A program made the position numbers and the translations under genes. From contig WTGO01000024.1 of the NCBI GenBank assembly GCA_011523515.1, forward strand, positions 1 to 64,000: a stretch of DNA of 64,000 nt, given 5' to 3'. This document shows, piece by piece, positions 3,830-61,058 of this stretch. Origin of the DNA: Chloroflexota bacterium. GTDB lineage: Bacteria > Chloroflexota > Anaerolineae > Aggregatilineales > Phototrophicaceae. The notes under the pieces are model-generated. The model did not search any database and was not told the DNA's origin. It saw nothing but the letters and a program-made list of their open reading frames with translations. Numbering within the stretch: position 1 is the first letter of the stretch; each line of letters begins with the position of its first letter.

Positions 3830-4717
3830 ATGAAGATTTCCGCCTTTCCCAAGTGTTATCTCGATGACATCGCCGGCGACCGCGCGATGTCAGTCTTTGA
3901 CTGGATTGAAATGGCCAAGTCCCTGCCCGCCGAAGGGCTGGAGATGTACGAGGGCTTTTTCACCAGTCTCGACGACAGCTACATATTAGAAGTGCGCGAC
4001 GCCATCGCTGCTGCCGGCTTCGCGATGCCCATGCTTTGCTGCTCGCCCAACTTCACCCACCCCGAAGCCGACGAGCGTAAACGCGCCGTCGAACACGAAG
4101 CCAAGATGATCCGCGTGACCAAACTGCTGGGCGGCGAGGGCGCCGTCTGCCGCGTGCTCAGCGGGCAGCGTTACCCGGATGTCAGCCGCGAGCAGGGCTT
4201 GGAGTGGGTGATCGAGTGCATTGAGCAGGTGCTGCCGGTCGCGCGCGAACAGGGCATCGTCCTGGGGCTGGAGAATCACTACAAAGACGGCTTCTGGCGC
4301 TATCCCGAATTCGCCCAGAAGATGGATGTCTTCCTCGAATTGCTGGACGCGATTTCCGAGCGCGAGTATTTCGGCGTGCAGTACGACCCGTCAAACGCCA
4401 TCGTCGCCGGCGATGATCCGCTTGAATTGCTGCAGGCGGTGAAGCGCCGCGTGGTCAGCATGCACGCCAGCGACCGCTTCCTGACTGAGGGTTATACGCT
4501 CGACGACCTGCGCGACAGCGACGGCACGATCGGTTATTCGCCGGCGCTGCAGCACGGCGTGACCGGCCAGGGCCTAAACGATTTCGACAAGATCTTCGAG
4601 ACCCTGAGCGAGGTCGGGTTCGCCGGCTGGGTCAGCATCGAAGACGGCATGAACGGCATGGGTGAAATGCGCGAATCGCTGGAGTTCTTGCATTTGATGC
4701 GCGACCGCTATTTCTGA
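3830..4717 (+). CDS. Sugar phosphate isomerase/epimerase (TIM barrel, xylose-isomerase-like)
   Basis: AP-endonuclease-2/xylose-isomerase-like TIM barrel of 295 residues, a family of metal-dependent ketose epimerases and isomerases. Metal ligands expected for the fold are visible: Glu in 'LGLENHY', Asp in 'QYDPSNAI', His in 'SMHASDRF' and Glu in 'SIEDGMNG'. The protein is full length and the ATG at 3830 is the only sensible start. It stands close to an alcohol dehydrogenase and a hexulose-phosphate-synthase-like gene, suggesting a small sugar or polyol catabolic set, although a Uma2 gene interrupts it. Substrate cannot be read from sequence. Confidence 0.85.
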   Translation: MKISAFPKCYLDDIAGDRAMSVFDWIEMAKSLPAEGLEMYEGFFTSLDDSYILEVRDAIAAAGFAMPMLCCSPNFTHPEADERKRAVEHEAKMIRVTKLLGGEGAVCRVLSGQRYPDVSREQGLEWVIECIEQVLPVAREQGIVLGLENHYKDGFWRYPEFAQKMDVFLELLDAISEREYFGVQYDPSNAIVAGDDPLELLQAVKRRVVSMHASDRFLTEGYTLDDLRDSDGTIGYSPALQHGVTGQGLNDFDKIFETLSEVGFAGWVSIEDGMNGMGEMRESLEFLHLMRDRYF

Positions 4718-5463: not shown

Positions 5464-6507
5464 ATGGACGCTCTCATAAAATACGGACGCGAAGACAAGA
5501 ATGTCGAACTTCGCGATATCCCGCAACCGCGCGACCCGGCGCCGGGCCAAGTCGTCGTGGAAGTCGGCGCGGCCGGCGTCTGCGGCAGCGACCTGCATAT
5601 GTGGCGCGATCATCAGAGCTGGACGATCAAATTGCCGCTGGTATTGGGGCACGAGTTCTGTGGCGCGGTCGCGGCTGTCGGCGCTGATGTCACCGGCTTC
5701 AAGGTCGGCGATCGCGTGGCGGTGGAGACGGCCGCCGAAATCTGCGGCAACTGCGCCTACTGTCATTCCGGCGACTACAATCAGTGCCCGCACCGGCTGG
5801 GCTACGGCGCGCTTTACGATGGCGCCTTCACGCAATACGTGACCGCCCGGCAGCAAATCCTGCACCATATTCCGGACAATGTCACATTCGAGCAAGCCTC
5901 GCTGACCGAGCCCATCTGCGTCGCCTACAACGCCCTGGTCGAGAAGACGCCGGTCGTGCGGCCGGGCGATACGGTGGTGATTCAGGGACCGGGCCCCATC
6001 GGCATGATGGCGCTCTTCGTGGCTGTGCTGCGCGGCGCGTCCGAGATCGTCATGCTGGGCACGCGCCACGATAGCAAGCGGCTCGCGATCGCGGCCGAAA
6101 TCGGCGCGACTCAGACGCTGAACATCGACGAAGCCGACCCGGTCGAATTGGCGCGCTCGCTGGGCGATGGCTACGGCGCCGACCTGGTCGTCGATTGCAG
6201 CGGCGTCAGCATCGCCTTGCAATCCGCGCTGGAGATGGTGCGGCCCAACGGCACGATCACCAAGATCGGCTGGGGACCGCAGCCCCTGGACTTCAACCTC
6301 GATCCGCTGGTGCAGAAAGGGGTGACGCTGCAGGGCTGCTTCAGCCATCTCTACGATACCTGGGAGCGGGCGCTGAACTTGCTGTCGACCGGGCAGATCG
6401 ACCTCGCGCCCATCATCGGCGGGGTCTATCCGCTGGCGGATTGGGAAGCGGCCTTCGAGCAGATGGAGTCCGGCGAGAATGTGAAGTCTGTTCTCGTGCC
6501 GGCCTAA
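5464..6507 (+). CDS. Zinc-dependent alcohol dehydrogenase (sorbitol/threonine dehydrogenase-like)
   Basis: Medium-chain dehydrogenase of 347 residues that probably oxidises a secondary alcohol of a polyol or sugar with NAD. Catalytic zinc ligands are seen in 'CGSDLHMW' and 'GHEFCGAV'. The structural zinc site has four cysteines in 'CGNCAYCHSGDYNQC'. The Rossmann nucleotide motif is 'IQGPGPIGMMALF'. The C terminus ('GQIDLAPIIGGVYPLADWEAAFEQM') is typical of the sorbitol dehydrogenase branch. With the upstream isomerase and the downstream hexulose-phosphate-synthase-like gene it may form a short polyol pathway; the actual substrate is not determinable. Confidence 0.9.
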   Translation: MDALIKYGREDKNVELRDIPQPRDPAPGQVVVEVGAAGVCGSDLHMWRDHQSWTIKLPLVLGHEFCGAVAAVGADVTGFKVGDRVAVETAAEICGNCAYCHSGDYNQCPHRLGYGALYDGAFTQYVTARQQILHHIPDNVTFEQASLTEPICVAYNALVEKTPVVRPGDTVVIQGPGPIGMMALFVAVLRGASEIVMLGTRHDSKRLAIAAEIGATQTLNIDEADPVELARSLGDGYGADLVVDCSGVSIALQSALEMVRPNGTITKIGWGPQPLDFNLDPLVQKGVTLQGCFSHLYDTWERALNLLSTGQIDLAPIIGGVYPLADWEAAFEQMESGENVKSVLVPA

Positions 6508-6617: not shown

Positions 6618-6660
6618 AGTTCCCTTCCCTGTTGCTTCGGGGAGGGGTTAGAGGAGGGGT
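6618..6660 (-). repeat. C/G-rich dispersed intergenic repeat, copy 1
   Basis: Read on the minus strand this stretch is CCCCTCCTCTAACCCCTCCCC, then an 8-10 nt loop region, then AGGGAAGGGAA. The same pyrimidine-block / loop / purine-block design occurs at 38060-38101 and 47248-47288. Here it abuts the hexulose-phosphate-synthase-like gene and supplies a GAGGAGGGG stretch that looks like a ribosome binding site. Confidence 0.6.
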
Positions 6661-7333
6661 AGAAATCGACGCCAAAATCCAAATCTCAATTGATGTCATC
6701 GACCTGCAGGAAGCCCTTGACCTCGCCCGCGCCTCGGTCAAAGCCGGCGTGGACTGGCTCGAGGTCGGCACGCCGCTGCTGCTCGCCGAGGGCCTGCACG
6801 CCGTGCGCGCCTTCCGCGCCGAGTTCCCTGACACACCCATCGTGGTCGACCTCAAGACCATGGACGGCGCCGGCCTGGAAGCCGAGATGATGTTCAAAGC
6901 CGGCGGCGACATGGTGGTCGTCATGGGCCAGGCGCACGATGCCAGCATCATCGAGCAGGTCAAGATGGCGCGGCGCTACGGCAAGCAGGTGATGTGCGAT
7001 GTCATGCTCTGCCCCGACAAGCCCGGCCGCGCGCGCCAGGCGCAGGACATGGGCGTCGACTATATCATCGTGCACACCGGCTTCGACGAGCGCAATATGA
7101 TCCCCGGGCTCAGCCCGCTCGATGATCTCGAGGACGTGCTGGCCGCGGTCGATATCCCCGTGCAAGCGGTCGGCGGACTCAGCGTGCCGCAGGCGATTGA
7201 GACCCTCGCCCTGGGCGCGGAGATAGTCGTCTTCGGCGCGCCGCTGGTGATCAGCGGGCAAGAATTCAAGGCGGCCGACCCCAACTTCGACCGGCAGCTG
7301 CGCGAGATCGTGGCCGAAGTGCGCGGCGCCTAA
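6632..7333 (+). CDS. 3-hexulose-6-phosphate synthase-like / OMP-decarboxylase suprafamily enzyme
   Basis: TIM-barrel enzyme of the orotidine-5'-phosphate decarboxylase suprafamily, closest in style to 3-hexulose-6-phosphate synthase or 3-keto-L-gulonate-6-phosphate decarboxylase. The suprafamily active-site motif D-x-K-x-x-D is intact ('VVDLKTMDG'). Also visible are 'DWLEVGTPLLLAEG' near the N terminus and 'YIIVHTGFDER'. No partner 6-phospho-3-hexuloisomerase gene lies nearby, so formaldehyde fixation is not assured. The start is uncertain. The open frame begins at TTG 6632 inside a repeat. The codon ideally spaced after the AGGAGG at 6652-6657 is ATC (6665), not a standard start, and no ATG or GTG occurs before the first barrel strand. 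Confidence 0.82.
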   Translation: MLRGGVRGGVEIDAKIQISIDVIDLQEALDLARASVKAGVDWLEVGTPLLLAEGLHAVRAFRAEFPDTPIVVDLKTMDGAGLEAEMMFKAGGDMVVVMGQAHDASIIEQVKMARRYGKQVMCDVMLCPDKPGRARQAQDMGVDYIIVHTGFDERNMIPGLSPLDDLEDVLAAVDIPVQAVGGLSVPQAIETLALGAEIVVFGAPLVISGQEFKAADPNFDRQLREIVAEVRGA

Positions 7334-7422: not shown

Positions 7423-7451
7423 TTGAGTTGTGCGGGCTTCAGGCGTATACT
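7423..7451 (+). promoter_or_regulatory. Sigma70-type promoter of the first acyl-CoA-dehydrogenase-like gene
   Basis: TTGAGT (7423-7428), 17-bp spacer, TATACT (7446-7451), 41 bp before the ATG at 7493. The hexamers and spacing match the housekeeping consensus well. Confidence 0.55.
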
Positions 7452-7492
7452 TACGCGCTTGTAATGCGCAGCGACCATTTGAGACCGCCTGT

Positions 7493-9055
7493 ATGTTTCT
7501 AAACGACCCTGACTTTGGCGAGATCGTCGACTTTGACCAGTTGCGGCTGTCGATCCGCCATCTCTATGACGCCCTGCTGCCCGACTTCAACATGCACAAG
7601 TCGCTGCAAGTCGGCGCCGAGCTCTACGGCGACGACCCCAGCGCCATGATCGCGGCCGGCGCCAGCATGCTGGCCTGGATGACGATCATCGCCGCCGGTG
7701 AAGACGAAATCGCCGAGGAGCTGAAGGACAGTCTCTTCACCCTGGGCTGGACGGAAGAAGAAATCGGCTCCGACCTGTTAAGCGCCAGTACCGTGGCCAC
7801 GCCGGCTAACAACGACCCCGCTTGCGTCGATTATCATCTCAAGGGGCGCAAGTGGCTGATCAACAATTCCCACCATGCCGATTATCACACCATCGTGGCC
7901 AAAGTGGACGCCGAATCCAGCGGGCCGCGCTCGCTCTCAATCTTCCTGGTGCCGCAGAGCAGCTGCAAGAATTGGCAGCGCCTGGAGACCCACGTGCTGC
8001 GGCGCATGGTGCTGACATCCTTCGACATCGACGGGCCGGGTCGCTTGCTGGGCAAGGTCGGCCACGGCCTGCAAATCCTGCAGCGCATGGCTATGCCCAG
8101 CAAATATCAGTGCGCCTATGTCGGCATCAAGCTGCTCAACGAAGCCATCCCGGCCAGCATCGAGCACTTGTCCAAGAAGCGCATTTTCAATGAGAATCCC
8201 ATCAATTTCAGCAATGTCTTGCGCCAGATGTACAACCTCGTCCTGCAAGCGGCCGTGCTGAACTTCATCTATTATCGCGCGCTGGCTTTCAGCGCCGGCA
8301 ACTTCCTGCAATTTCACGGCGTCATGCTCAAATCCTGGCTGCTGCTGCGCGCCAACGAGCTGTTGGGCCAGAACCTGCTGGTGGTCGGCTCGAAGGGCTT
8401 CCTGTTGGATTCGGTCATCGGCCGCAACGCCATCGATTCTTTTGTGCTGCCGGTATTCGACGGTCATTACACCATCAACACGCTGATGACCGCCAAGCAC
8501 GTCAAGCGCTACCTGGGAGCCGAGCGCCGCGCCAGCGTCGCCGAGCGCCTGGCGACGCTGCGGCATGGCGTCACCGCATCGCGCTCAGGCGACCCCATCC
8601 GCGCCAACTCGCGCCAGTTGCGCAACCCCGATTTCTTCGACTACGCCGGCTACATCGAAGACCTCGACTTGCCCATCGACCTGGACGCTCGCGGCTTGGT
8701 GGCGGCGATGCAAGCGCTGGCCGACGAGCTCAACGAACGTGGTTTATCGCAGGACCCGGAGCATCGCTACAAGCTGGGCACGCTGCTGCATTGGATGGAG
8801 GCGCTACTGGCGGCCTGCGAGATGTGGAAAGCGGCCGAGGAGCCGGAGTTCCTCAACGCGATCGTGATGCAGTACAACGCCTTCGCCAACCAATTCAATC
8901 AGGTGATCAGCGAGAGCGCGCTGAGTACGCCTTTCCTGGAGCAGATGCGGCAGCAGCCGCTGCGCCGCGTCGAGCAGCCGCGGGCCTTCCTGCTGCGCTT
9001 GTTCCAGCTGGCTCAGCAATTCGCCTCCCCGCGCGAGGCTGCTGTGGCGAAGTAG
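7493..9055 (+). CDS. Acyl-CoA dehydrogenase family protein with altered catalytic position (paralogue 1)
   Basis: Flavoprotein of the acyl-CoA dehydrogenase fold, 520 residues, longer than the usual 380-400 because of an extra C-terminal helical region. The family flavin-loop signature is clear ('FTLGWTEEEIGSDLLSAS', equivalent to TEPxAGSD), as is 'KWLINNSHHADYH' matching the WITN strand. Where classical members have Y-E-G-T with the catalytic Glu, this protein has 'VFDGHYTINTL', i.e. Asp; the alternative Glu site used by isovaleryl-CoA dehydrogenase reads LQRM, also lacking Glu. The ATG at 7493 was chosen because it aligns with the start of the paralogue at 9984; the frame is open from 7430. 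The reaction is unknown; an oxidase or atypical dehydrogenase is possible. Confidence 0.82.
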   Translation: MFLNDPDFGEIVDFDQLRLSIRHLYDALLPDFNMHKSLQVGAELYGDDPSAMIAAGASMLAWMTIIAAGEDEIAEELKDSLFTLGWTEEEIGSDLLSASTVATPANNDPACVDYHLKGRKWLINNSHHADYHTIVAKVDAESSGPRSLSIFLVPQSSCKNWQRLETHVLRRMVLTSFDIDGPGRLLGKVGHGLQILQRMAMPSKYQCAYVGIKLLNEAIPASIEHLSKKRIFNENPINFSNVLRQMYNLVLQAAVLNFIYYRALAFSAGNFLQFHGVMLKSWLLLRANELLGQNLLVVGSKGFLLDSVIGRNAIDSFVLPVFDGHYTINTLMTAKHVKRYLGAERRASVAERLATLRHGVTASRSGDPIRANSRQLRNPDFFDYAGYIEDLDLPIDLDARGLVAAMQALADELNERGLSQDPEHRYKLGTLLHWMEALLAACEMWKAAEEPEFLNAIVMQYNAFANQFNQVISESALSTPFLEQMRQQPLRRVEQPRAFLLRLFQLAQQFASPREAAVAK

Positions 9056-9983: not shown

Positions 9984-11528
9984 ATGAACACCATCAAAGA
10001 CGCCCAATTCGGCGACATCCTCGACTACCAGCGCCTGCGCGACGGCATGAGCCGCGTGCTCGACCACGTCTACCCCACTTTCAACCTGATGGGCTCCATG
10101 CTGGAAGCCACACGCCTCTTCCACAACAACCCCAGCTACATGACCGCCTGCGCCGCCAGCGGACTCGCTTACATGATGCTGGTCGCCGCCGAAGAAGACG
10201 AACTGGCCGCGAAGCTCAAAGGCCAAATCTTCACGCTCAGCTGGACGGAAGAGCATACCGGCACCGACCTGCTGAGCGTCAAAACGCGCGCCACCCCTGA
10301 CCCGGCCGACCCAGCTGGCAAGCGTTACCACATCCAAGGCCAGAAGTGGCTGATCAACAACTCATACCACGCCGATTATCACTCGGTCATCGCCAAGGTC
10401 GATCCCGACGCCGATGGTCCGCGCTCGTTGTCGATCTTCGCCGTGCCGCATAGCAGCACCAAGAATTGGCAGCGGCTGGACACGCATGTGCTGCGCAGCA
10501 TGGTGCTGACGAAATTCGACATCGACGGGCCGGGCACGCTGATCGGCCAAGTGGGACGCGGCCTGGAAATCTTGCAGCGGATGGCGCTGCCGTCCAAGTA
10601 TCACTGCTCGTACATGGGCGTGAAGATGGTGGACGACTCGCTGCCCGCCGCCATCGAGCATCTATCCAGCAAGAATATCTTCGGCGGCAATCCGATTCAG
10701 TTCAGCAATGTCTTTCGCCAACTCTACAATCTGACGCAGCAGGCGGCGCTGATCAACTTCACTTTCTTCCGCGCGTTGGCCTTCAGCGACAGTCCCTTCC
10801 TGCAATTCCACGGCATCATGCTCAAGTCCTGGCTGCTGCTGAAATGCAACGAAATCCTGTCGCAGAATCTGCTGGTGACCGGCTCCAAGGGCTTCCTCAA
10901 AGAATCAAATATCGGCGGCAACGCCATCGATTCCTTCGTCTTCCCGGTCTTTGACGGCCACTACACGCTCAATACGCTGCTGACTTACAAACACATGCAG
11001 CGCTACCTGGGCGCGACGGCGCCGGGCGATATCGAGGAGCGCATCGGCGTGCTCCGTCAGAACGCCTATGTGCCTCTGGAAGGCAAGCAGATTTTCAACA
11101 ACAGCCGCGAGACGCGCCGCCCGCCTTTTTTCGATTACGCCGATTACATTTCCCGCTGCGCCCTGCCGATTGACCTGGACGCCGGGCTGCTGGTCAAGTC
11201 AAGCGCGGGCATCATAGACGCCATTCAAGCGCTCGGCGCCGCCAACGAACCGGAATACCGCTACAAGATCGGCATGCTCGCGCACAACCTCGAGGCGCTG
11301 CTCTCCGCGGTCGAGCTCTGGAAAGTCACCGCCAACGACCACTATCTCAACGCCATCATCATGCAGTACAACGAGGTCGGCAAGCTGATCAATCGCATCA
11401 TCAGCGAGGGCGCGCTGCCGGTCGACTTCATCCGCCCGCTGCGACAGCTCCCCCTGCCCCGTCCCGATGCCCCGCGCGATTTCCTGCTCGGCCTGCTCGA
11501 TGTCAAAGGCCAGATTCGCGGAATTTGA
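9984..11528 (+). CDS. Acyl-CoA dehydrogenase family protein with altered catalytic position (paralogue 2)
   Basis: Paralogue of the gene at 7493, 514 residues, collinear along its whole length ('DAQFGDILDYQRLRDG', 'FTLSWTEEHTGTDLLSV', 'KWLINNSYHADYHSV'). It carries the same replacement of the catalytic Glu by Asp ('VFDGHYTLNTLL') and the same long C-terminal helical region, so both features are conserved rather than random decay. That points to selected function: either a dehydrogenase using Asp as base or another flavin reaction. The two proteins may form a heteromer. Substrate unknown; no CoA ligase or ETF gene is visible nearby. Confidence 0.83.
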   Translation: MNTIKDAQFGDILDYQRLRDGMSRVLDHVYPTFNLMGSMLEATRLFHNNPSYMTACAASGLAYMMLVAAEEDELAAKLKGQIFTLSWTEEHTGTDLLSVKTRATPDPADPAGKRYHIQGQKWLINNSYHADYHSVIAKVDPDADGPRSLSIFAVPHSSTKNWQRLDTHVLRSMVLTKFDIDGPGTLIGQVGRGLEILQRMALPSKYHCSYMGVKMVDDSLPAAIEHLSSKNIFGGNPIQFSNVFRQLYNLTQQAALINFTFFRALAFSDSPFLQFHGIMLKSWLLLKCNEILSQNLLVTGSKGFLKESNIGGNAIDSFVFPVFDGHYTLNTLLTYKHMQRYLGATAPGDIEERIGVLRQNAYVPLEGKQIFNNSRETRRPPFFDYADYISRCALPIDLDAGLLVKSSAGIIDAIQALGAANEPEYRYKIGMLAHNLEALLSAVELWKVTANDHYLNAIIMQYNEVGKLINRIISEGALPVDFIRPLRQLPLPRPDAPRDFLLGLLDVKGQIRGI

Positions 11529-51658: not shown

Positions 51659-52720
51659 TTACGTTCCCGAGGTACAGGGCGCGGCTGGATCGTAGTTGTC
51701 GCCAAAGGTTCCGCTGGCGTCACCCGCAAGGTTGTCCCACACGCCATTTCCGCAAATGCTACCTTGTTCGTCGACCAGGATCTTGATACCGCCCGCTTGG
51801 TTGCCGTTGATCAGATTGCCGTAGACCTCGTTCTCGACGCCATATTGGATGCCGTCAACGAAGCGCCCGCCCAGCCGCACACCGGCGCCAACGCTGTCGT
51901 AAATCTCATTGTAGCGGATGATATTGCCTTTGCCGCGCGACACGATCCCGCCGGAATTGGGATCTTTCTGACCGGTGCGGATGTTGTATTCGATGATGTT
52001 GTACTCAGTGCCTTCTTTGGCTTCGACGCACTCGTTGCCCTGCGTGTCCATGAAGTTGTTATGGACCCAGTTGTACGCGGTGACGTCCGGCTCAATCGTC
52101 AAGTTGATATCCTACTGCTTGCATGGGGTACCGAGATAGACCGCCTCGCCGACGACACCATGGACGTCGAAGACGAAATCCCAGATGCCGCAATCATGAA
52201 AGCTGGAGCAGGCGATCTCAGTGTGTCGGGCGAAGTATTTGATGCGCAGGCATTCTTCGCCGGCGTTGCGGAAGGTAATGCCGAGGACGCGCAGGTTGTT
52301 GACGCCATCGCGCGCATCATAACCGATGACGTATAGCGGCTTCTCGCGAAATGCGCCCATGCGGTTGGGCTCGGCGTTGCGGCGCAGCCTGTCGATGGTG
52401 AAGCCGATCAGGCTGATATAGTCGTGATGCACCTGGAAAATGCGGTTGCTGGTTAAGCCATGCACGACTGCGTTGGCCGTGCCAGTGATCGTGATAGGGC
52501 GGCCGGGCTCGCCATCGCGCACCGTGAAAACGTCTTGATAATAATGCCCGGGCGCCAGGTGGGGTGAAGGTCTCGTGAAATGGCGTTTCGGTGATGTAGC
52601 CGACTTTTGAGGCGGCATAAGGCGCCGTCCCGTTACCGCCGCCACCAAAGCGCTGTCTGTCGTGTTCAAATGATGTCAGCAGATTCGCATTTTCCAGCGG
52701 CAGCCCAGCCAAGGTGACGA
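51659..52720 (-). pseudogene. Broken right-handed beta-helix (pectate-lyase-like) protein
   Basis: Parallel beta-helix repeats are evident ('YNIIEYNIRTGQKDPNSGGI', 'YVIGYDARDGVNNLRVLGIT', 'VFTVRDGEPGRPITITGTAN'). The reading frame is interrupted by an in-frame TAG at 52112-52114 ('YLGTPCKQ', stop, 'DINLTIEPDV'). A further frame change near 52560 separates the start of the helix from an N-terminal piece containing 'GNGTAPYAASKVGYITETPF'. Both halves otherwise read well, so inactivation is recent. Such proteins are usually secreted polysaccharide lyases or surface proteins. Sequencing error could explain one lesion but less easily two. Confidence 0.75.
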
Positions 52721-52894
52721 CACAGGCGCAGCGCCTCCAACGCCCGCGTCGTCGGGTTTGTGACGTCCGCAATCGAAGCCAACCGGATCAGCGTTTGACT
52801 TTGCGCTTCGCTGAAAACCAGCAGAATGTGAGTGGCCTAAGACCCGCGCTCCTCATCGTGCTGAGATTAGCATCGAGCCGGACTCGCCATGACC

Positions 52895-53860
52895 TCAGCG
52901 CACGATGTCGGCGTCGGGCCGGTCGAGCAGGTCCTCTAATTCGGCGCGAGTTACATACACGGCATCGCCATAGTGCGTGAGGCATAGCGCGGCAGTTAGA
53001 ACACCGTAGCGCAAGCCTTTGAATAGATCGCCCTGCAGCCAGCCGTGCAAAACACCCGCGACCATGGCGTCGCCGGCGCCGATGCGGTCGATTACCTGAA
53101 TGTTCTTGGCCGACTCGATACGCATGGACTGGCGATCCCAGGCGATGATGCCCTCGCTCCCCAGCGAAGTAACGATGGCGCTGGCCGCCGTTAAGTCACC
53201 GAGCTGACGGACGATGTCTTCGGGAGCGCCCGAAAACCCGTACATGCGCTCGGCATCGCCGCGGGCGAAGAACAGCAAATCGACCGCCCCCAGGAAGGGC
53301 GCGATCGCTTCAGCCGCCTCGTCCGTTGTCCAGATGCGGCTGCGATAATTCATATCAAAGCTGATGAGAATGCCGGCGGCTTTGGCCCGGTCGACCGCTT
53401 CGGCCAAAATGGCGTTTATCGACGGCGACAGCGGCACGCTCAAGCCGGAGATATGCAGCAGTCGCGTATCCAGCAGATACTCCCAGTCGATGTCATCGCG
53501 GGTCATGTTGACAAAGCAGGTGCCCTTACGATCGTAGTAGACCTGCGTGCCTTGGGGCGGTGTACCGAATTCAACATAGTAAATCGCCAGGCGCCCGTTT
53601 TCAGACCAGACCAGGGCCGACAGATCCAGCCCGGACTGCGCGTATTCGTTCGCGACTCGCCGTCCGAAAGGATTGCTGGGCAACGCGCTCACCCAGCCGC
53701 AACGCCAGCCCAAGCGCGCCAACAAACTCGTGACGTTCGCTTCGGTGCCGGTGACATTAACATCCAGCCGCGTTGCCCGTTCCAGATGCGCCCCCAAGGG
53801 CACACTGTATCGCAGTTGGCCTTCGCCGATTGTGGTCACATCAAAGCGCGGTATCGTCAA
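52895..53860 (-). CDS. PfkB family carbohydrate kinase in the ula-type operon
   Basis: Ribokinase-fold kinase of 321 residues. The C-terminal anion-hole/catalytic motif is 'DRIGAGDAMVAGVLHG' (Asp as base) and the N-terminal Gly-rich sugar-binding segment is in 'LDVNVTGTEANVTSLLARLG'. It is most like 2-keto-3-deoxygluconate kinases in layout. Its first 20 bp overlap the end of the UlaE-like gene, so it is part of the same transcript. In the absence of a PTS, this is the only candidate in the cluster for creating the phosphorylated substrate that UlaG-, UlaD- and UlaE-type enzymes need. The true substrate must be shown by experiment. Confidence 0.9.
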   Translation of the reverse strand: MTIPRFDVTTIGEGQLRYSVPLGAHLERATRLDVNVTGTEANVTSLLARLGWRCGWVSALPSNPFGRRVANEYAQSGLDLSALVWSENGRLAIYYVEFGTPPQGTQVYYDRKGTCFVNMTRDDIDWEYLLDTRLLHISGLSVPLSPSINAILAEAVDRAKAAGILISFDMNYRSRIWTTDEAAEAIAPFLGAVDLLFFARGDAERMYGFSGAPEDIVRQLGDLTAASAIVTSLGSEGIIAWDRQSMRIESAKNIQVIDRIGAGDAMVAGVLHGWLQGDLFKGLRYGVLTAALCLTHYGDAVYVTRAELEDLLDRPDADIVR

Positions 53861-54701
53861 TTAACCCACCTTCCAGCATCTTGCCAACGACCCATTGCCT
53901 CGCGGCTGCGATCAATTCCATCGAGTCGGGCCGATTGTCATTCCACATCTCAATCAGTACCGGCCCGCGAAAGCCGAGCTCCGCCAATTTGCGAAAGGCA
54001 GCGACAAAAGGAACGACCCCCTCGCCAAATGGCACCCGCCGCGGCTCGCCCGGTCGCGAATCTTTGACATGAACGCCGATGATGTGACCCTGCCCAATAC
54101 CCAGCTCGTCGCCAACATCGAATCCATGCGCGGCCAGGTTGCCGATATCAGGATAAATCTGAAACCATGGCGAATTCAACGCTTCGACATGGCGCATAGC
54201 GCGGCTGATCGAATCAACCACGTTGGCGCCCTCCATAGTTTCCACACCCAACATGACGCCGGCCTCGCTCGCCCACGGTATCCCCTGCGCCAATGACTCC
54301 AAATAGCGCCGCTCGCTGCCGGCGTCGCTAGCGCCATAATAATCATAATAGCCGGCGATCTGTATGATGCGGACGCCCAGGTCCAGGCTGAAGTCAATCG
54401 CCTTTTGCAGGAGATCCAAGCCCTTGCGCCTTGTAACCGGATCCGCGCTTCCCAGCGCCAGCGCTCGATGCGCGCTCAAGCACATCGTCATCAAGGGTAC
54501 GCCGCTTTTGTCGGTCGCATCACGCAAGCGCCTGCGCTCGGCTTTCGTCCAATCCAGGCGCGCCTGCCGTTCCGCGCTTTCGTCGCAGGAGAGCTCGACG
54601 AAGTCGAAGCCGACCTGCCGCGCCAGATCCAGCCGCTCATACCAGTCGATATCGAGTGGCAGAGCCTTTTCATAGATGCCAAGAGGAAGCGCTGTCGGCA
54701 T
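53841..54701 (-). CDS. ulaE: L-xylulose-5-phosphate 3-epimerase (UlaE/SgbU family)
   Basis: TIM-barrel epimerase of 286 residues that converts L-xylulose 5-phosphate to L-ribulose 5-phosphate. The N terminus 'LPLGIYEKALPLDIDWYERL' and the run 'VGFDFVELSCDES' match this family closely. The four metal ligands are visible: Glu in 'MLGVETMEG', Asp in 'QIYPDIGN', His in 'IIGVHVKDS' and Glu in 'VLIEMWNDN'. ATG 54701 is chosen over 54743 because homologues start at this helix and it leaves a 5-bp gap from the preceding decarboxylase gene. It overlaps the kinase gene. Confidence 0.92.
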   Translation of the reverse strand: MPTALPLGIYEKALPLDIDWYERLDLARQVGFDFVELSCDESAERQARLDWTKAERRRLRDATDKSGVPLMTMCLSAHRALALGSADPVTRRKGLDLLQKAIDFSLDLGVRIIQIAGYYDYYGASDAGSERRYLESLAQGIPWASEAGVMLGVETMEGANVVDSISRAMRHVEALNSPWFQIYPDIGNLAAHGFDVGDELGIGQGHIIGVHVKDSRPGEPRRVPFGEGVVPFVAAFRKLAELGFRGPVLIEMWNDNRPDSMELIAAARQWVVGKMLEGGLIDDTAL

Positions 54702-54706
54702 AGCTA

Positions 54707-55378
54707 TTATGAATTTTGCGCTGGTGCGGCGAAAGCGCTGCAAATCGCTCGCTGAAATGAAGCTGCCGCCCCCGCCGGGTTAGCAGCGTTGCGGATTGCA
54801 CGGCCGGAGATGAATATGTAGACGGGAATCCCGGCAAAGGTTGACACATCGTTGACGCCCACGCTTCCGGCTACGGTCACGCGGTATCCCATGTCCGCCA
54901 GTCGTCGGATATTGTCCAGATCCGCCCTGCCCCAAGCGAGCTCGCCCTGCGCCTCAGCATCGCGGCTGCGGTGGATGATGGCCTGGTCGATGCCGATCTC
55001 GCGCCAACGCGCGGCCTGCTGCCAGGTCCAGCCGTCACTCAACTCAATTTGCACATCGCCGCCCTGCTGCTGCGCCACATCGTAGACGACTTCCGCGGTT
55101 GACGGCGCCGCGCCGCTCACCACACTCACCCAATCCGCGCCAGCCTCAAACGCCATCTTGGCGATGATTCCACCCGCTTCGGCAATACGGACATCGGCCA
55201 GGATGGTCTTGTCCGGAAAGAGGCTGCGGATGACGCGAACCGCGCCCATGCCCTCGGACAAGCAGAGAATTGTGCCGACTTCAATGATATCGATATGAGG
55301 CGCCGCTTGCTGCAAGGGGGCGAGCGCGGAAGGCAGGTCAAAGGTATCCAGAGCAAGTTGCAGCAGCGGTTTCCGCAT
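54707..55378 (-). CDS. ulaD: 3-keto-L-gulonate-6-phosphate decarboxylase-like protein (UlaD/SgbH family), variant active site
   Basis: OMP-decarboxylase-suprafamily barrel of 223 residues, very similar to E. coli UlaD: 'HIDIIEVGTILCLSEGMGAV', 'GGDVQIELSDGWTWQQAARW', 'IIHRSRDAEAQGELAWGRAD', 'YIFISGRAIRNAANP'. The metal Glu and the His-Arg pair of the active site are kept. The hallmark D-x-K-x-x-D motif, however, reads 'LADVRIAEAG': Lys is replaced by Arg and the second Asp by Glu. The Lys is thought to stabilise the enediolate in this family, so activity may be changed. Neighbours (UlaG, UlaE, kinase, transporter) still argue for this pathway. It lies 6 bp after the permease gene. Confidence 0.88.
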   Translation of the reverse strand: MRKPLLQLALDTFDLPSALAPLQQAAPHIDIIEVGTILCLSEGMGAVRVIRSLFPDKTILADVRIAEAGGIIAKMAFEAGADWVSVVSGAAPSTAEVVYDVAQQQGGDVQIELSDGWTWQQAARWREIGIDQAIIHRSRDAEAQGELAWGRADLDNIRRLADMGYRVTVAGSVGVNDVSTFAGIPVYIFISGRAIRNAANPAGAAASFQRAICSAFAAPAQNS

Positions 55379-55384
55379 GGAGGC

Positions 55385-56296
55385 TTATCCCTTTACTGCG
55401 CCGGCCGTCATGCCGGCGATAATCTGCCGCGCCGCCACAAACGTCAGCACCAGCGGCGGTATGACGATCAGCGTGCCCATCGCCATGATGCGCCCCCACT
55501 GCACCCCCTGCTCGGTCAGGAAGAGCGTGATGCCGACCGGCAGGGTGCGGGTATTGCGGTCGGTCAATACCAGCGCCAGCAGAAATTCGTTCCAGGAAAT
55601 GCGGAAGGTGAATATCGCCGCCACCGCGAGGCCGGGCCGCATCAAAGGGAAGATGACCCGCGTGAAAATCTGCCACTGCGACGCGCCGTCAACGGTAGCC
55701 GCTTCTTCAATTTCGGTGGGGATCTGGCGCAGAAAGCCGATCAACAGCCAGATGGCAAAGGGCAAGTTCAGCGCGGTATAGAAGAGCGTCAAGCCAATGC
55801 GGCCGTCGACCAAACCTTCCGCGAACAAGTAGGGATCGGGATTCTCCAGCTCATACAAGAAGGGCGTGGCGTCGATCAGATCGAACAGAAACAATTCCCA
55901 GTTCAGCCACAATATGAAGATGGGAATGGCCAGAACAGCCGGCGGCACCATGCGAATGATCAGGGTGAAATACGCGATCGGCGATCGGCCCGGGAACTCC
56001 AGCCGCGCCAGCGCGTAAGCGGCCATCCCGGCGACCAGCAGCGACAGCACTGTCGACGCCAATGACACAATGATCGAATTGCGCAGGAAGAGATCGAATT
56101 TGTTTTCAAATACGTGCGTGTAGTTGTCGAAGGTAGGCTGGAATATCCACATCGACTCCCCGGACATGATGTCCACTTGCGTTTTGAACGACGTGACGAA
56201 CATCACGATGATCGGTCCCAAAGCGAGCAGCGCAAGAAATATCAAGACCGCATACTGCAGAACAGTCGACCGGTTTAGGCCATTGATCGCGTTCAT
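55385..56296 (-). CDS. Sugar ABC transporter permease (MalG-like, CUT1)
   Basis: Permease of 303 residues with six helices. The EAA loop 'EEAATVDGASQWQIFTRVIF' is standard for carbohydrate uptake type 1 systems. It follows the MalF-like gene by 24 bp and precedes the decarboxylase by 6 bp. No dedicated ATPase gene occurs in the operon; CUT1 systems often share a common MsmK/UgpC-type ATPase encoded elsewhere. Confidence 0.95.
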   Translation of the reverse strand: MNAINGLNRSTVLQYAVLIFLALLALGPIIVMFVTSFKTQVDIMSGESMWIFQPTFDNYTHVFENKFDLFLRNSIIVSLASTVLSLLVAGMAAYALARLEFPGRSPIAYFTLIIRMVPPAVLAIPIFILWLNWELFLFDLIDATPFLYELENPDPYLFAEGLVDGRIGLTLFYTALNLPFAIWLLIGFLRQIPTEIEEAATVDGASQWQIFTRVIFPLMRPGLAVAAIFTFRISWNEFLLALVLTDRNTRTLPVGITLFLTEQGVQWGRIMAMGTLIVIPPLVLTFVAARQIIAGMTAGAVKG

Positions 56297-56320
56297 AAAG
56301 CGAGCGCCATTTCACTCATG

Positions 56321-57217
56321 TCAGAAATCCGCTCTTTCTTTCAGGGGATTGGAAAACAGCAGCAGAATCAGACTGAGCACCAGCATGATGAACATGAGCA
56401 CGACAGCGATCGTCGAGGCATAGCCCAAGGTCTGCGAGGTAAAGGCCGTCTTGTAGATATGCAATGACAAGACCTGTGTGCTCCGTCCCGGGCCGCCGAA
56501 GGTCATGATGAAGATCACCTCCAGGGCGCGGAAGACATCGATGAGGCGCATCAGGATGGTCACCAGCAAGATAGACCGCAGCATCGGCACCTTGATGAGA
56601 AAGGTCATCTGCCACCAATTGGCGCCGTCGATGCGCGATGCCTCCAAGACTTCTGATGGCAGCGCCTGCAAGCCGGCCAGCAGGATGATGAAGATGAAGG
56701 GCGTCCACTGCCAGATATCGGTAATGACGATGGAGAAAAACGCCAAATCCGGGTTGCCGAGCCAAGTTTGAGCCGGTATGCCGATCAGCCCCAGATAGTG
56801 GTTGATCAGCCCGATACGACCATCGAGGAGATAGCGCCAGATCAAGCCAACCGCGACCGGCGACACCATCAGCGGCAAGATGAATATCGTCCGGAAGACC
56901 GCGGCGCCTTTGATCGGCTTCTCCAGAAGCAAGGCCAGGCCCATGCCGATCACCAGCTCGGCGACTAGAACGACGGCCGCAAAGCGCAGTGTGACGCCCA
57001 CCGACGAGCGCACATGATCATCATCCACCATGCGCTCATAATTCTCCACGCCCACGTAGTCGCGGTCCGACCAGCGTGAACCCATCGAGAGGCGATTGAA
57101 GCTGAGCTCAAAGGTGTTGATCAGCGGGACGACAAGACCAAGCAAGAATATGATGATCGCGGGCAGCAAGAATAAGGTTGCGATCCGTATCTGTCGTAGC
57201 TTGAATGAAGATTGCAT
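56321..57217 (-). CDS. Sugar ABC transporter permease (MalF-like, CUT1)
   Basis: Permease of 298 residues; first helix 'IATLFLLPAIIIFLLGLVVP', EAA loop 'LEASRIDGANWWQMTFLIKV'. It pairs with the MalG-like protein and lies 77 bp after the binding-protein gene. Part of the seven-gene ula-type operon. Confidence 0.95.
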   Translation of the reverse strand: MQSSFKLRQIRIATLFLLPAIIIFLLGLVVPLINTFELSFNRLSMGSRWSDRDYVGVENYERMVDDDHVRSSVGVTLRFAAVVLVAELVIGMGLALLLEKPIKGAAVFRTIFILPLMVSPVAVGLIWRYLLDGRIGLINHYLGLIGIPAQTWLGNPDLAFFSIVITDIWQWTPFIFIILLAGLQALPSEVLEASRIDGANWWQMTFLIKVPMLRSILLVTILMRLIDVFRALEVIFIMTFGGPGRSTQVLSLHIYKTAFTSQTLGYASTIAVVLMFIMLVLSLILLLFSNPLKERADF

Positions 57218-57294
57218 GTAAGTATCCAGAATAATGCGCTAGGTGGGGAGCCGCACTTCGGCCCCCCAATCGTTAGTCTAGCGCGTTTGCGGCG

Positions 57295-58665
57295 CTACAT
57301 ATCCATGCTGGACCAGCCGTAGTAACCGGCGCGTTCCATTTCGGCCCGCATCTCCTCGGCCGCTTGCGCCATAGCTTCTTCGGCGGTCATGTTGCCGGTG
57401 GCGAATTCCGACACATACACACCCAGGATCGGGGCATTCAGCGCGCCCCATTCGGGGATCAGCGGACGCCAGTTGGGGTTGGCGCATTCAAGCTGTTCCA
57501 CGACCACGGTGTATTCCGGAAACATCTCTTGCAGCTCGGGATCTTCCAGCGTGGACACGCGGCCCGGGTCAGCGCCGATCAGCGCCAGCTGACGGTCGAT
57601 ACGCGGGCTAGTCATCCACTGCATAAAGAGGAAGGCCGCTTCTTTGTTGGCGGAGTTGGAGGGGATGCCCATAGCGAAACCACCGGTCTCCGACAGACCA
57701 CACTCGGCATCGCCGACCTTGGGATGCAAGGCGTATCCGACCTTGCCGTCTATCAGCGACTGATTGGGATCGCGCGTCATGGCCGCAATCTTGTGCGAGT
57801 CGACGTAAATCGCCGAGTCGCCCTGCAGGAAGGCATTGGCCTGATCGCCGAAACCGTTCGCCTCGACGCCGGGCGGTGAATTCTCCATGATGGTCTTCAA
57901 GGCGCGCAGCGAAGCGATGGCTTCGGGCGATTCAACAGCGGGCTCCCAATTCTCGTCGAAGATCGTGCCGCCGTAGGGACTCAAATGCAGCAGCCAGCCG
58001 TGTACAATCTGGTGCCCGGCCGCGCCGCGGCTGGTCATGCCATAGACGCCATCAACATTTTCCGTGATGTAGGCCGCAGTTTCGAGCATATCGTCGTAGG
58101 TAACCGGCACGTCAAGCCCGTGTTCTTCGAAAATGTCCGCCCGGTAGGCCATGATGCTGGTCTCGGCGCCGAAAGGCAGGCCATACAGCGCTTGGGTCGG
58201 ACCTGGCAGGTAGGCGTTGGTGCCGCCGACGACGCCGCCCGTCTCGGTCCAGGCAGCCACCAGATCATCGGGGTTATAGCTGGGATCGGCCAGCGCGGGA
58301 TTGACGAAGAAATTGGCCAGCGGCTCGAGGTAGCCGTTGATGACGTATTCCGACTTGGTGAAGACGACCCAGGCGACCACATCATATTCACCCGTGCGCG
58401 GCTTCTGCAATTCGACTTCCTGCGCCGGCTTCATCGCCTGGTATTGCAGGAAATCGACCTCAACATTGATGCCGGTTTCCTCCTCAAATTGCGGAATGAG
58501 CGTAGCGGCCTGGTTAAAGTGGTAAAGCGATGGCCAACTGACGACGATCGTATCGCCGCGATAGGGGGCATACGGATCAAACGCGTCTTGCGCTTGCGCC
58601 GCGTTGCCGAATATCGCCGTCAACAGCAAGATGACAAGTACCAAAGTCGCAGTCCTCTTCTTCAT
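57295..58665 (-). CDS. Extracellular sugar-binding protein family 1 (CUT1)
   Basis: Exported binding protein of 456 residues. The signal peptide (about residues 1-25, 'MKKRTATLVLVILLLTAIFG' followed by NAAQAQ) precedes a typical SBP_bac_1 body ('LIPQFEEETGINVEVDFLQY', 'VDSHKIAAMTRDPNQSLIDG', 'FLFMQWMTSPRIDRQLALIG'). Two acidic C-terminal helices complete it. It delivers the substrate of the ula-type pathway; L-ascorbate or a related aldonolactone is inferred only from the enzymes around it. Confidence 0.94.
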   Translation of the reverse strand: MKKRTATLVLVILLLTAIFGNAAQAQDAFDPYAPYRGDTIVVSWPSLYHFNQAATLIPQFEEETGINVEVDFLQYQAMKPAQEVELQKPRTGEYDVVAWVVFTKSEYVINGYLEPLANFFVNPALADPSYNPDDLVAAWTETGGVVGGTNAYLPGPTQALYGLPFGAETSIMAYRADIFEEHGLDVPVTYDDMLETAAYITENVDGVYGMTSRGAAGHQIVHGWLLHLSPYGGTIFDENWEPAVESPEAIASLRALKTIMENSPPGVEANGFGDQANAFLQGDSAIYVDSHKIAAMTRDPNQSLIDGKVGYALHPKVGDAECGLSETGGFAMGIPSNSANKEAAFLFMQWMTSPRIDRQLALIGADPGRVSTLEDPELQEMFPEYTVVVEQLECANPNWRPLIPEWGALNAPILGVYVSEFATGNMTAEEAMAQAAEEMRAEMERAGYYGWSSMDM

Positions 58666-58715
58666 GTCAGTTCTCCTATCTAATATTAAGCGCTTGAGCC
58701 TTTACTAACGAAACT

Positions 58716-58727
58716 TGACAAGTGTCA
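58716..58727. promoter_or_regulatory. Palindrome TGACA-AG-TGTCA (candidate operator)
   Basis: Lies 51 bp upstream of the binding-protein start, in the 147-bp gap after the UlaG-like gene. Same arms and spacing as the pair at 20550-20577 upstream of the ribose-type transporter, suggesting one regulator acts on both transport operons. Confidence 0.45.
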
Positions 58728-58812
58728 GTACCCATTCCTTTCTCTTTGCCATTTCAGCAGCTTTAACATTCGCAATCCACCCTCCGCACGCCGCGCGCTT
58801 CAGTAAGCTTGG

Positions 58813-59874
58813 CTAAAGCATGGACTTGTAGGGCAAGTCCGGCTCGATTGCGAAGACATCTTCGAAACCGCGCCGATGGTTGTAGATGACCTTGTCTTTG
58901 TCCCCCGGATAAACGTATTTGCCGCCGACTTGCCAAATGAAGGGCTTGAATTTGTATTGCAAGCGATCTTTTCGCATCCCCCACAGGACCAGGATCTCGT
59001 TGGGATCTGCCTGGAAATTTGTCCAGATATCGTGATGAACCGGTATGACCACCTCACAGTTGAGACATTCCGCCATTCGCAGCAGATCCAGCGAGCCCAT
59101 CTTGTCAGTGATGCCGCGTGGATTGTCGCCAAAGTTGCCCAAGGCCACGTGTATGTCGTGATCGTTGCCGTGCTTGGCAAACCAGTTGGAGTAATGAGAA
59201 TCGGAGGCGTGATAGAGATTGCCGCCGCTGGTCTTGAAGAGGTAGTTCACCGCGCGTTCGTCCATCTCCTGCGGCATCTTGCCCTTGAGTATTATTTCGG
59301 GCGGCGCCGTGACCAATTCGGTTCGATCAAAAGAATCCAGCACAACAATATTGATGTCCCCGATCGTCACCTCGTCACCGGGCTTCACCACCATACAGCG
59401 CTCACGTGGCACCCCCCAACCCACCCACTTGTCGACGCAGGTTTGGGGCCCGATGAAGGGTACGGACGGGTCGCAGTTTTGCACGATAGCGGCGGCAACA
59501 TTGACATCAATGTGATCGCTGTGGTCATGCGTGGCCAAAATCGCGTCAACTTGGCGAATGGCGAAGGGATCGAGCGGCACGATGGCGTTGCGCAGATTCG
59601 GCTGCACCATCTGTACGCCGCTGGCGCGCTGGTGTTGATGGCGGTGGCGCATCCATGTCTCGGCTTGGGTCCGCTTGCCGGATTGCACCCAAAGATCGAT
59701 GCATAAGTGCGTACTGCCGGCCGACTTGAGCCAGATGCCGCAGCAACCGAGCCACCACATGGCAAAACTGCCCGGCGCTACCGCCTCCGCTTCAATCTCT
59801 TCATTGAGCCAGGTCCCCCATTCCGGGAAACTGCTCAATATCCAGGATTCTCGATTGATTTCGTCTATCCGCAT
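58813..59874 (-). CDS. ulaG: L-ascorbate-6-phosphate lactonase (UlaG family)
   Basis: Metallo-beta-lactamase-fold lactonase of 353 residues that opens L-ascorbate 6-phosphate to 3-keto-L-gulonate 6-phosphate in the cytoplasm. It matches E. coli UlaG nearly end to end, for example '[20 protein letters not shown]', '[19 protein letters not shown]', '[20 protein letters not shown]' and '[20 protein letters not shown]'. The metal site H-x-H-x-D-H is intact ('[10 protein letters not shown]'), and the distal His residues are in '[10 protein letters not shown]'. ATG 59874 gives the standard N terminus. It is the first gene of the minus-strand operon and faces the SorC regulator. Confidence 0.95.
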
Positions 59875-60069
59875 TCACACCCTGGGTTCAGATTTACTTG
59901 CGAGCGAAGCGCCACCACCCGCGTATCCTTCCAGCACTTCTGCTTTCAATATTAACGAGAAGCGCCATTCGCGCCACTAATCTGAGAAAATGTGCAGAAC
60001 TGCCTGGAAACTGCTACAATTGGCGGAAAATCACTAAATTCAAGTGAGAAAATTTCGCTAGCTTGCACA

Positions 60070-60081
60070 CAATTGCAATTG
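60070..60081. promoter_or_regulatory. Palindrome CAATTGCAATTG and TGAGAAAAT direct repeats upstream of the SorC gene
   Basis: The perfect 12-bp palindrome CAATTGCAATTG lies directly before the GGGAG ribosome binding site of the regulator. Two direct repeats of TGAGAAAAT (59983-59991 and 60045-60053) occur in the same divergent region. Any of these may be the site of SorC autoregulation and control of the ula-type operon. No factor is proven. Confidence 0.35.
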
Positions 60082-60092
60082 GGAGTGTACAT

Positions 60093-61058
60093 ATGGGTAT
60101 TCCCGCATTTGACAGCAATCGTCAAGCACTGTTGGAGGTCGCGCGGCTTTATTATGAACAGGACCTGACGCAGAGCGAGATTGGACGCCAGTTGAACCTG
60201 TCGCGCTCTACGGTTTCGCGCATGCTGCAGCGCGCTCGCGAAAGCGGCATCGTATCCATAACCGTCAACTACGATGTCGCGCGTGATCATGCTTTGGAAG
60301 AGACATTGAAGTCGGCGTTCGCCTTGCGAGAGGTCAGGGTGCTGAGCAGCGGCAAGCGCTCGCTCGACTCAATGCTAAACGGCATCGGCAAACTCGGCGC
60401 CAACCTGCTGGAAGCGTCCCTGGGCGACAACAGCACACTGGGCCTGTCTTATGGTCGCTCGCTGGCCAACACGGTTGAGCAGGTGCGGCCGCGACAGAGC
60501 GAGAGCCTTACGGTGGTGCCGGTCATCGGCGCCCTGGGTTCGGACAATCCGCTGATAGAGGGCATTGATCTGACCCGGCAGCTGGCGACCAAACTCGGGG
60601 CCAGGTATCGCTATCTGCATGCGCCCCTGCTGGTGGAAGACAGGCGGACGCGCGACCTTTTCCTGCAGGAGCCGACGGTCAGCGATGTATTGCAGATCGC
60701 GGCCAAAGCCAACACGGTTCTCATCGGCATCGGTTCATTGCAGGCGGAGTCGTCCGGAATCATTTGGACTGGTTACATCACTCGCAAAGAGCGGGATTGG
60801 CTGCATAATATCGGCGTAGTCGGGCATATGTGCGCGCAGTTTTTTGATGTTAGCGGGAAAATTCTTGACATCGGAATCAATCAAAGGTCGATCAGCATTG
60901 GTTTGGAGGCGCTCAGCCGGATCGACAATGTGATCGCCGTCGCCGGCACGACGGACAAAGCCAGCGCCATACTCGGCGCGCTGAACGGCGGCTACATAGA
61001 TTCCCTCGTCACGGACGACCGCGCCGCGCGTCAAGTACTTGAATTAATGAAGTTATGA
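60093..61058 (+). CDS. SorC family transcriptional regulator, divergent from the ula-type operon
   Basis: Regulator of 321 residues. Helix-turn-helix 'DLTQSEIGRQLNLSRSTVSR' (about residues 24-43) and a SorC effector domain ('LGLSYGRSLANTVEQVR', 'VVPVIGALGSDNPLIEGIDL', 'VIAVAGTTDKASAILGALNG'). ATG 60093 follows GGGAG; the upstream in-frame codon at 60063 is not preferred. The divergent arrangement with ulaG makes it the likely controller, in place of the DeoR-type UlaR used by enterobacteria. The effector is presumably a pathway sugar phosphate. Confidence 0.91.
   Translation: MGIPAFDSNRQALLEVARLYYEQDLTQSEIGRQLNLSRSTVSRMLQRARESGIVSITVNYDVARDHALEETLKSAFALREVRVLSSGKRSLDSMLNGIGKLGANLLEASLGDNSTLGLSYGRSLANTVEQVRPRQSESLTVVPVIGALGSDNPLIEGIDLTRQLATKLGARYRYLHAPLLVEDRRTRDLFLQEPTVSDVLQIAAKANTVLIGIGSLQAESSGIIWTGYITRKERDWLHNIGVVGHMCAQFFDVSGKILDIGINQRSISIGLEALSRIDNVIAVAGTTDKASAILGALNGGYIDSLVTDDRAARQVLELMKL

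What the first reader, a model, noticed from the sequence alone, without database searches (positions are those of the whole stretch)
52895..61058. PTS-free L-ascorbate-type (ula) operon with an ABC importer and a PfkB kinase
Seven consecutive minus-strand genes encode a UlaG-type lactonase, CUT1 binding protein, two permeases, UlaD- and UlaE-type enzymes and a PfkB kinase, with a divergent SorC regulator. Known phosphorylative ascorbate catabolism (UlaABC PTS, UlaG, UlaD, UlaE, UlaF, regulator UlaR) relies on the PTS to phosphorylate ascorbate during uptake. Here that step has no gene; instead ABC import would deliver free substrate and the kinase would have to phosphorylate it. This implies an L-ascorbate kinase or a kinase for a related lactone. 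UlaF (L-ribulose-5-phosphate 4-epimerase) and a transporter ATPase are missing from the window.
Basis: partly seen in the sequence, partly recalled or inferred. Interest (0 to 1): 0.8.

Follow-up and report, generated by a model that had tools for sequence, protein, structure and literature searches.

The report
PTS-free ascorbate operon with sugar kinase
An uncultured Chloroflexota bacterium carries what looks like a vitamin C (L-ascorbate) breakdown operon in which the usual transporter that phosphorylates its cargo is replaced by an ABC importer plus a separate sugar kinase, pointing to an unassayed kinase step and an unusual version of the pathway's decarboxylase.

Summary
In detail: ulaG-SBP-permease-permease-ulaD-ulaE-pfkB on the minus strand with a divergent SorC-family gene. 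The held genome (94.9% complete) has no UlaA-type EIIC and no HPr match. It has a UlaF-type 4-epimerase and MalK-type ATPases on other contigs. Eleven loci, including the window, share the kinase: ten with ABC permeases, one with an MFS transporter. Of ten genomes picked for carrying this UlaD, six have the kinase and no HPr, four have HPr and no kinase. So the kinase most likely supplies the phosphate that the PTS supplies elsewhere.
New: the decarboxylase reads D-x-R-x-x-E where KGPDC, HPS and OMPDC have D-x-K-x-x-D. This variant forms one clade (98/94) and also sits in a PTS operon with UlaG and an ascorbate EIIC, so it need not mark a different substrate. The kinase resembles 2-keto-3-deoxygluconate kinase, so it may act on L-ascorbate or, after lactone opening, on 3-keto-L-gulonate. 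That order is unresolved; no substrate is proven. New variant of a known pathway.

The parts
52895..53860 (-). PfkB-family sugar kinase, KdgK-like; proposed to phosphorylate O6 of L-ascorbate or 3-keto-L-gulonate
   Evidence: present in 11 of 11 non-PTS loci examined
53841..54743 (-). UlaE-type L-xylulose/L-ribulose 5-phosphate 3-epimerase
   Evidence: NF009688 333.6 bits vs cut-off 317
54707..55378 (-). [quoted passage not shown]
   Evidence: NF009832 257.2 vs 250, NF009831 229.1 vs 294; motif; trees
55385..56296 (-). CUT1 ABC permease 2
   Evidence: PF00528 55.1 bits
56321..57217 (-). CUT1 ABC permease 1
   Evidence: PF00528 55.9 bits
57295..58665 (-). ABC solute-binding protein
   Evidence: PF01547 126.6 bits
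58813..59874 (-). UlaG-type L-ascorbate 6-phosphate lactonase
   Evidence: NF008688 617.8 vs 306; 2wyl 578.2 bits
59983..59996 (-). candidate operator TGCACATTTTCTCA between ulaG and the sorC-type gene
   Evidence: exact in 6 and with one base changed in 2 of the 8 upstream regions aligned, window included; only site in the whole genome at up to 1 mismatch
60063..61058 (+). SorC-family regulator, divergent
   Evidence: PF04198 229.7 bits

Best explanation
This is a PTS-independent form of the phosphorylative L-ascorbate (ula) pathway. The ABC importer (with an ATPase encoded elsewhere) brings in unphosphorylated L-ascorbate or a near relative. The PfkB kinase adds the 6-phosphate that the UlaABC PTS adds in E. 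coli, UlaG opens the lactone, the variant UlaD decarboxylates 3-keto-L-gulonate 6-phosphate to L-xylulose 5-phosphate, UlaE makes L-ribulose 5-phosphate, and a UlaF/AraD-type enzyme encoded elsewhere makes D-xylulose 5-phosphate. I favour kinase before lactonase (about 0.5) over lactonase before kinase (about 0.3). Shown: genes, no HPr or UlaA match, kinase/HPr exclusion in the genomes examined, motif change. Inferred: every substrate and the order of steps.
For: UlaG, UlaE and UlaD family matches. No UlaA-type EIIC and no HPr match in the genome, while the same searches ring in 4 and 7 of 14 control genomes. Six kinase-type genomes: HPr in 0 of 6; four PTS-type genomes: HPr in 4 of 4, kinase at E 1e-25 in 0 of 4. 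The kinase gene is in 11 of 11 non-PTS loci, and in 0 of 70 mainly proteobacterial UlaD loci, 67 of which hold an EIIC match. Same UlaD clade in a PTS operon with UlaG (632.5 vs 306) and an ascorbate EIIC (403.5 vs 380). UlaF-type genes inside the kinase-type cluster in L042, L045, L046 and close by in L047. UlaG keeps, in all nine kinase-type rows, 113 of 129 columns that are invariant in 66 PTS-type UlaGs, and 8 of 9 such Lys/Arg, as expected if it still sees a phosphorylated lactone.
Against: No substrate is shown. UlaD lost two residues (K64, D67) common to KGPDC, HPS and OMPDC and misses its equivalog cut-off. The kinase resembles enzymes that act on open-chain keto acids, which argues against a lactone substrate. 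The kinase/PTS exclusion rests on one change on the UlaD tree and on genomes chosen for having this UlaD, two of them 80-83% complete. In the PTS-type loci L134-L136 there is no UlaG, and the two EIICs of L134 score below the ascorbate cut-off (348 and 356 vs 380); of the EIICs scanned only that of L126 meets it. No ulaF was found in L038-L041, L043, L044 and no ATPase is in the operon.
Confidence: 0.72

Rival explanations
1. Lactonase first: UlaG here opens free L-ascorbate to 3-keto-L-gulonate and the kinase is an ATP-dependent 3-keto-L-gulonate 6-kinase, a PfkB counterpart of the E. coli yia-pathway kinase LyxK.
Against: UlaG keeps nearly all columns invariant in PTS-type UlaGs; in L047 the lactonase slot holds a relative of phospho-furanose lactonase, a phospholactone family, though far below its cut-off (238 vs 630).
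Confidence: 0.3
2. The operon handles a different lactone or sugar acid (for example a gulonolactone-type or isoascorbate-type compound) and the altered UlaD has a new specificity.
For: K64R and D67E in every non-PTS member aligned and in all 120 listed of 845 database relatives, the window's own protein included; T169A in L009-L012 and the window, not in L013; kinase and binding protein meet no curated cut-off in NCBIfam.
Against: The same R/E motif occurs in operons with a PTS of ascorbate type, in L126 with UlaG too; UlaE and UlaF types fit L-xylulose 5-phosphate as product; KGPDC-type Glu112 and Arg139 are kept, unlike HPS.
Confidence: 0.2
3. The kinase is an ordinary 2-keto-3-deoxygluconate kinase that merely sits at the end of the operon.
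For: Family resemblance; where sources name the listed relatives, they say sugar kinase, 2-dehydro-3-deoxygluconokinase or hypothetical protein.
Against: The genome has another KdgK-like gene (36% identical, NF041332 284.7 bits against 241.4 for this one, both below 440). The kinase is tied to the operon in Chloroflexota, a Spirochaetes MAG and a Propionibacteriaceae MAG and absent where a PTS was found.
Confidence: 0.08

Closest known systems
E. coli ula regulon (UlaABC PTS, UlaG, UlaD, UlaE, UlaF, UlaR)
   Same: UlaG, UlaD-, UlaE-type enzymes; UlaF-type enzyme in the genome
   Different: No PTS; ABC importer and PfkB kinase instead; SorC-type instead of DeoR-type regulator; UlaD motif R/E instead of K/D. 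[quoted passage not shown]
E. coli yiaKLMNOPQRS (YiaMNO importer, LyxK, SgbH, SgbU, SgbE)
   Same: PTS-free uptake and a kinase ahead of a KGPDC, 3-epimerase and 4-epimerase (passages of PMC6958661)
   Different: There a TRAP-type importer, a reductase YiaK and an FGGY-family kinase (these labels recalled), no lactonase; here ABC importer, UlaG, PfkB kinase, no reductase in the operon
Non-phosphorylative L-ascorbate pathway with a COG4948 enzyme (Stack 2020, cited in PMC10444878; original not held; 'non-phosphorylative' recalled)
   Same: L-ascorbate breakdown; reported nearly complete in the cultured Chloroflexota (SAR202) strain JH545, whose growth ascorbate enhanced (passages)
   Different: Different enzymes; none of the nine proteins scanned here matches an enolase-superfamily model

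Membership tests
ula L-ascorbate pathway (E. coli type) | UlaG lactonase | tested here: met
   617.8 vs 306 bits
ula L-ascorbate pathway (E. coli type) | UlaABC PTS phosphorylating on uptake | tested here: not met
   no EIIC-GAT and no HPr match in the 94.9% complete genome; controls ring
ula L-ascorbate pathway (E. coli type) | UlaE 3-epimerase | tested here: met
   333.6 vs 317 bits
ula L-ascorbate pathway (E. coli type) | UlaF 4-epimerase | tested here: met
   G000:C99, subfamily NF005123 343.9 vs 251 (equivalog NF009691, also L-ribulose-5-phosphate 4-epimerase, 121 vs 489 not met); beside an araA-like gene, not in the operon
ula L-ascorbate pathway (E. coli type) | DeoR-type regulator UlaR | tested here: not met
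   SorC type (PF04198) instead
[quoted passage not shown]
   subfamily NF009832 met, equivalog NF009831 not met
[quoted passage not shown]
   17 of 24 positions identical to E. coli; changed 63, 64, 67, 87, 88, 114, 169; E33, D62, E112, H136, R139, R192 kept
[quoted passage not shown]
   -
2-keto-3-deoxygluconate kinase (KdgK) | curated equivalog models | tested here: not met
   NF041332 241.4 vs 440, NF040938 126.7 vs 400, NF052444 69 vs 400
PfkB kinase family | PF00294 and GAGD motif | tested here: met
   128 vs 25.8 bits; G261-D264 invariant in 11 rows
yia/sgb kinase-type pathway | FGGY kinase, TRAP importer, YiaK reductase in the operon | tested here: not met
   operon holds PfkB, ABC and no reductase; rest of genome not searched for them
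COG4948 ascorbate pathway | enolase-superfamily enzyme in the operon | tested here: not met
   none among nine proteins scanned; rest of genome not searched for it

The most novel reading that the evidence does not exclude
The kinase is an ATP-dependent L-ascorbate 6-kinase: a PfkB enzyme that took over the phosphorylation done by the ascorbate PTS, working with a KGPDC clade that replaced the catalytic Lys-Asp pair of the OMP-decarboxylase suprafamily motif by Arg-Glu.
Probability: 0.4. Interest if true: 0.65.

Novelty: new variant of a known kind. Interest (0 to 1): 0.52.

Why it matters
It would give bacteria without a PTS a phosphorylative route for vitamin C, assign a role to kinases now labelled only as sugar kinase or KDG kinase (903 relatives at E 1e-60 among the 7,998 candidates scored, of which 120 are listed; how many sit in ula operons was not examined), and offer a natural Lys-to-Arg, Asp-to-Glu variant of a motif shared by KGPDC, HPS and OMPDC (Table 1 passage of PMC5980557), which can be tested directly for mechanism.

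Tried and rejected
R/E motif as a mark of a non-ascorbate substrate tied to the kinase: weakened, because four PTS-type loci carry it too (L126, L134-L136).

UlaG residues as a test of step order: inconclusive to mildly in favour of kinase first. The first version of that count wrongly put L127, a kinase-type locus, among the PTS rows; one search leaves it out and is the one used. The single fixed difference, position 190 (Ala in 9 of 9 kinase-type rows; Leu in 65, Thr in L126), is read after that correction.

Phosphotriesterase-type lactonase of L047 compared with four PTS-type ones: 14 of 26 invariant Lys/Arg kept; inconclusive.

Operator search elsewhere in the genome for regulon members: only the one site. 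By itself one match in the window is near chance at up to 2 mismatches (expected 0.39); the case rests on conservation.

Kinase model: AlphaFold pLDDT 75.8 on 11 sequences, low at residues 101-109 beside the recalled substrate residues; used only to confirm KdgK-like kin, no substrate inferred from it.

Literature: searches that could have shown such an operon in print showed none in the titles and abstract starts listed; two searches found no paper at all, one search listed 15 of 4,713. The library misses most subscription papers, and two key papers on ascorbate pathways (PMC7059403, PMC2566198) are not held.
Full report
Observation. The seven minus-strand genes and the divergent regulator are present at the stated coordinates. 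Curated models name UlaG (617.8 bits, cut-off 306) and a UlaE-type 3-epimerase (333.6, cut-off 317) firmly. UlaD passes the KGPDC subfamily model (257.2, cut-off 250) and fails the UlaD equivalog (229.1, cut-off 294). The kinase matches PfkB (PF00294) but meets no curated sugar-kinase cut-off.

Genome. The window is part of a 66,883-base contig of a 4.15 Mb assembly, 94.9% complete. Most named records with close copies of the operon are Chloroflexota MAGs. The genome has no UlaA-type EIIC match and no HPr match; the same searches ring in 4 and 7 of 14 control genomes. Three genes with the MalK-type domain lie on other contigs; one (61.5 bits) stands among unrelated genes, one beside a permease-like gene, and the third is only just over the cut-off (29.8 vs 27) (neighbours judged by eye). 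The first could serve the importer. Of seven class II aldolase genes the best match to the UlaF genes of related loci was scanned: it is an L-ribulose 5-phosphate 4-epimerase (343.9, cut-off 251), next to a gene that reads as L-arabinose isomerase by eye. A ulaF missing from the operon is therefore no obstacle.

Distribution. Five of 33 same-genus genomes carry a close UlaD; of 27 family and order relatives one has a weak match (E 1.4e-6) and none a close one. Of 400 genomes drawn from the phylum two had a UlaD match at E 1e-40, the window's own and G350. The named scan kept 80 of 132 loci. Ten of them (L038-L047) carry ulaD, ulaE and the kinase: five (L038-L041, L044) that by identity and coordinates are the five same-genus genomes, L043, L045 and L046 from other Chloroflexota, L042 from a Spirochaetes MAG and L047 from a Propionibacteriaceae MAG. 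Nine of the ten, like the window, have ABC permeases; L045 is cut by its contig end before the binding protein and ulaG; L047 has an MFS transporter and a phosphotriesterase-type lactonase instead. The other 70 loci, mostly Vibrionaceae, Pasteurellaceae and Enterobacterales, show an EIIC match in 67, the kinase in none and the ABC permease in none.

Kinase against PTS. PTS-type operons with the same UlaD clade exist in another family of the class: 5 of 147 genomes of that family matched at E 1e-40; four have the R/E motif and the fifth (G517) is a distant protein (35%) with the usual lysine and no ula enzyme or PTS gene near it. L134-L136 have two EIICs, EIIA, ulaD, ulaE and ulaF, no kinase and no UlaG, with a phosphotriesterase-type lactonase instead; L126 has UlaG, EIIA and EIIC but ends soon after ulaD, so kinase absence was checked genome-wide. 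HPr is present in 4 of 4 PTS-type genomes and 0 of 6 kinase-type genomes; the kinase at E 1e-25 is in 0 of 4 and 6 of 6. These ten were chosen for having this UlaD; G003 and G567 are only 83% and 80% complete. On the UlaD tree the two contexts need one change (12 rows), so this is a clean switch, not many independent ones.

Altered UlaD. In the aligned set every non-PTS member reads D-V-R-I-A-E-A-G where E. coli has D-A-K-I-A-D-A-G. All 120 listed of 845 database relatives, the window's own included, have R and E. Of the 93 new proteins listed in the second search (120 listed of 481), 71 match the R/E pattern directly; two more (P0193, P0205) show it on reading the sequence, one (P0181) has R with K in place of E, and 19 have K/D. 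Against the KGPDC signature of PMC5980557 (passages read) the window matches E. coli at 17 of 24 positions; Glu33, Asp62, Glu112, His136, Arg139 and Arg192 are kept, Lys64 and Asp67 are not. Two relatives (L045, L047) also have Lys for His136. On a tree of 57 rows that I picked, R/E members form one clade (98/94), divided into a branch with the three PTS-type loci (10 rows, 100/99) and a branch with all eight kinase-type rows (20 rows, 98/97); 19 of the 30 R/E rows are proteins of unknown context. Without the eight motif columns, on 39 rows and by a quick search, the R/E clade remains (SH-aLRT 95). Both trees flag long branches, L047 among them. Because L126 holds UlaG (632.5, cut-off 306) and an EIIC above the ascorbate cut-off (403.5, cut-off 380), the R/E form most likely still serves ascorbate; against this, the two EIICs of L134 fall short (348 and 356).

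Regulation. Between ulaG and the sorC-type gene, 8 of the 8 Chloroflexota regions aligned hold the 14-base word TGCACATTTTCTCA (6) or a form with one base changed (L041, L046). Five of the eight are of the window's genus besides the window, so kinship explains part of this. The degenerate form TGCACATWTTCYCA occurs in 8 of the 137 loci then held, all kinase-type and all in that place, L127 being a second copy of L041's region; L042, L047 and the PTS-type loci lack it. In the window's genome it is the only site with up to one mismatch. It is a candidate operator.

Known and new. The 2011 UlaG survey (PMC3219644: abstract, passages and section 9) found the ulaABCDEF unit in all cases examined. 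The nearest kinase-based precedent is the E. coli yia operon (passages of PMC6958661). A cultured marine Chloroflexota strain is reported to have a different, COG4948-type ascorbate pathway (passages of PMC10444878). The sponge Chloroflexi paper's main text does not contain the word ascorbate (PMC6306507, term search). I saw no print report of an ABC-plus-PfkB ula operon (listings only). I file it as a new variant of a known pathway.

Noticed in passing
window 6632-7333 (+), with 5464-6507 and 3830-4717: A second OMP-decarboxylase-fold protein with an HPS-like motif (DLKTMD) behind an alcohol-dehydrogenase-like gene and near a TIM-barrel isomerase-like gene (by eye); another sugar gene cluster.
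   Followed up: no
window 51659-52772 (-): Beta-helix-like reading frames (by eye) spread over overlapping frames just downstream of the operon, possibly a broken gene or an assembly fault.
   Followed up: no
L126:143-1120, L134:11326-12291, L135:6096-7061, L136:6117-7082, L047:9001-9990: Relatives of phospho-furanose lactonase (L126 and L047 scanned, below cut-off) stand in the lactonase slot of R/E-type ula clusters; L126 has both this and UlaG.
   Followed up: partly
window 7430-9055 and 9984-11528 (+): Two tandem paralogues of 541 and 514 residues that look like acyl-CoA dehydrogenases (by eye).
   Followed up: no
L045:1912-2574 and L047:10001-10657: In these two R/E UlaDs the signature residue His136 is Lys, a further change.
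   Followed up: no
L043 and L046: HAD-type sugar phosphatase gene between ulaE and pfkB (hexitol-phosphatase-like in L043, below cut-off), in L046 also a uroporphyrinogen-decarboxylase-like gene (by eye); both loci have two binding-protein copies.
   Followed up: partly
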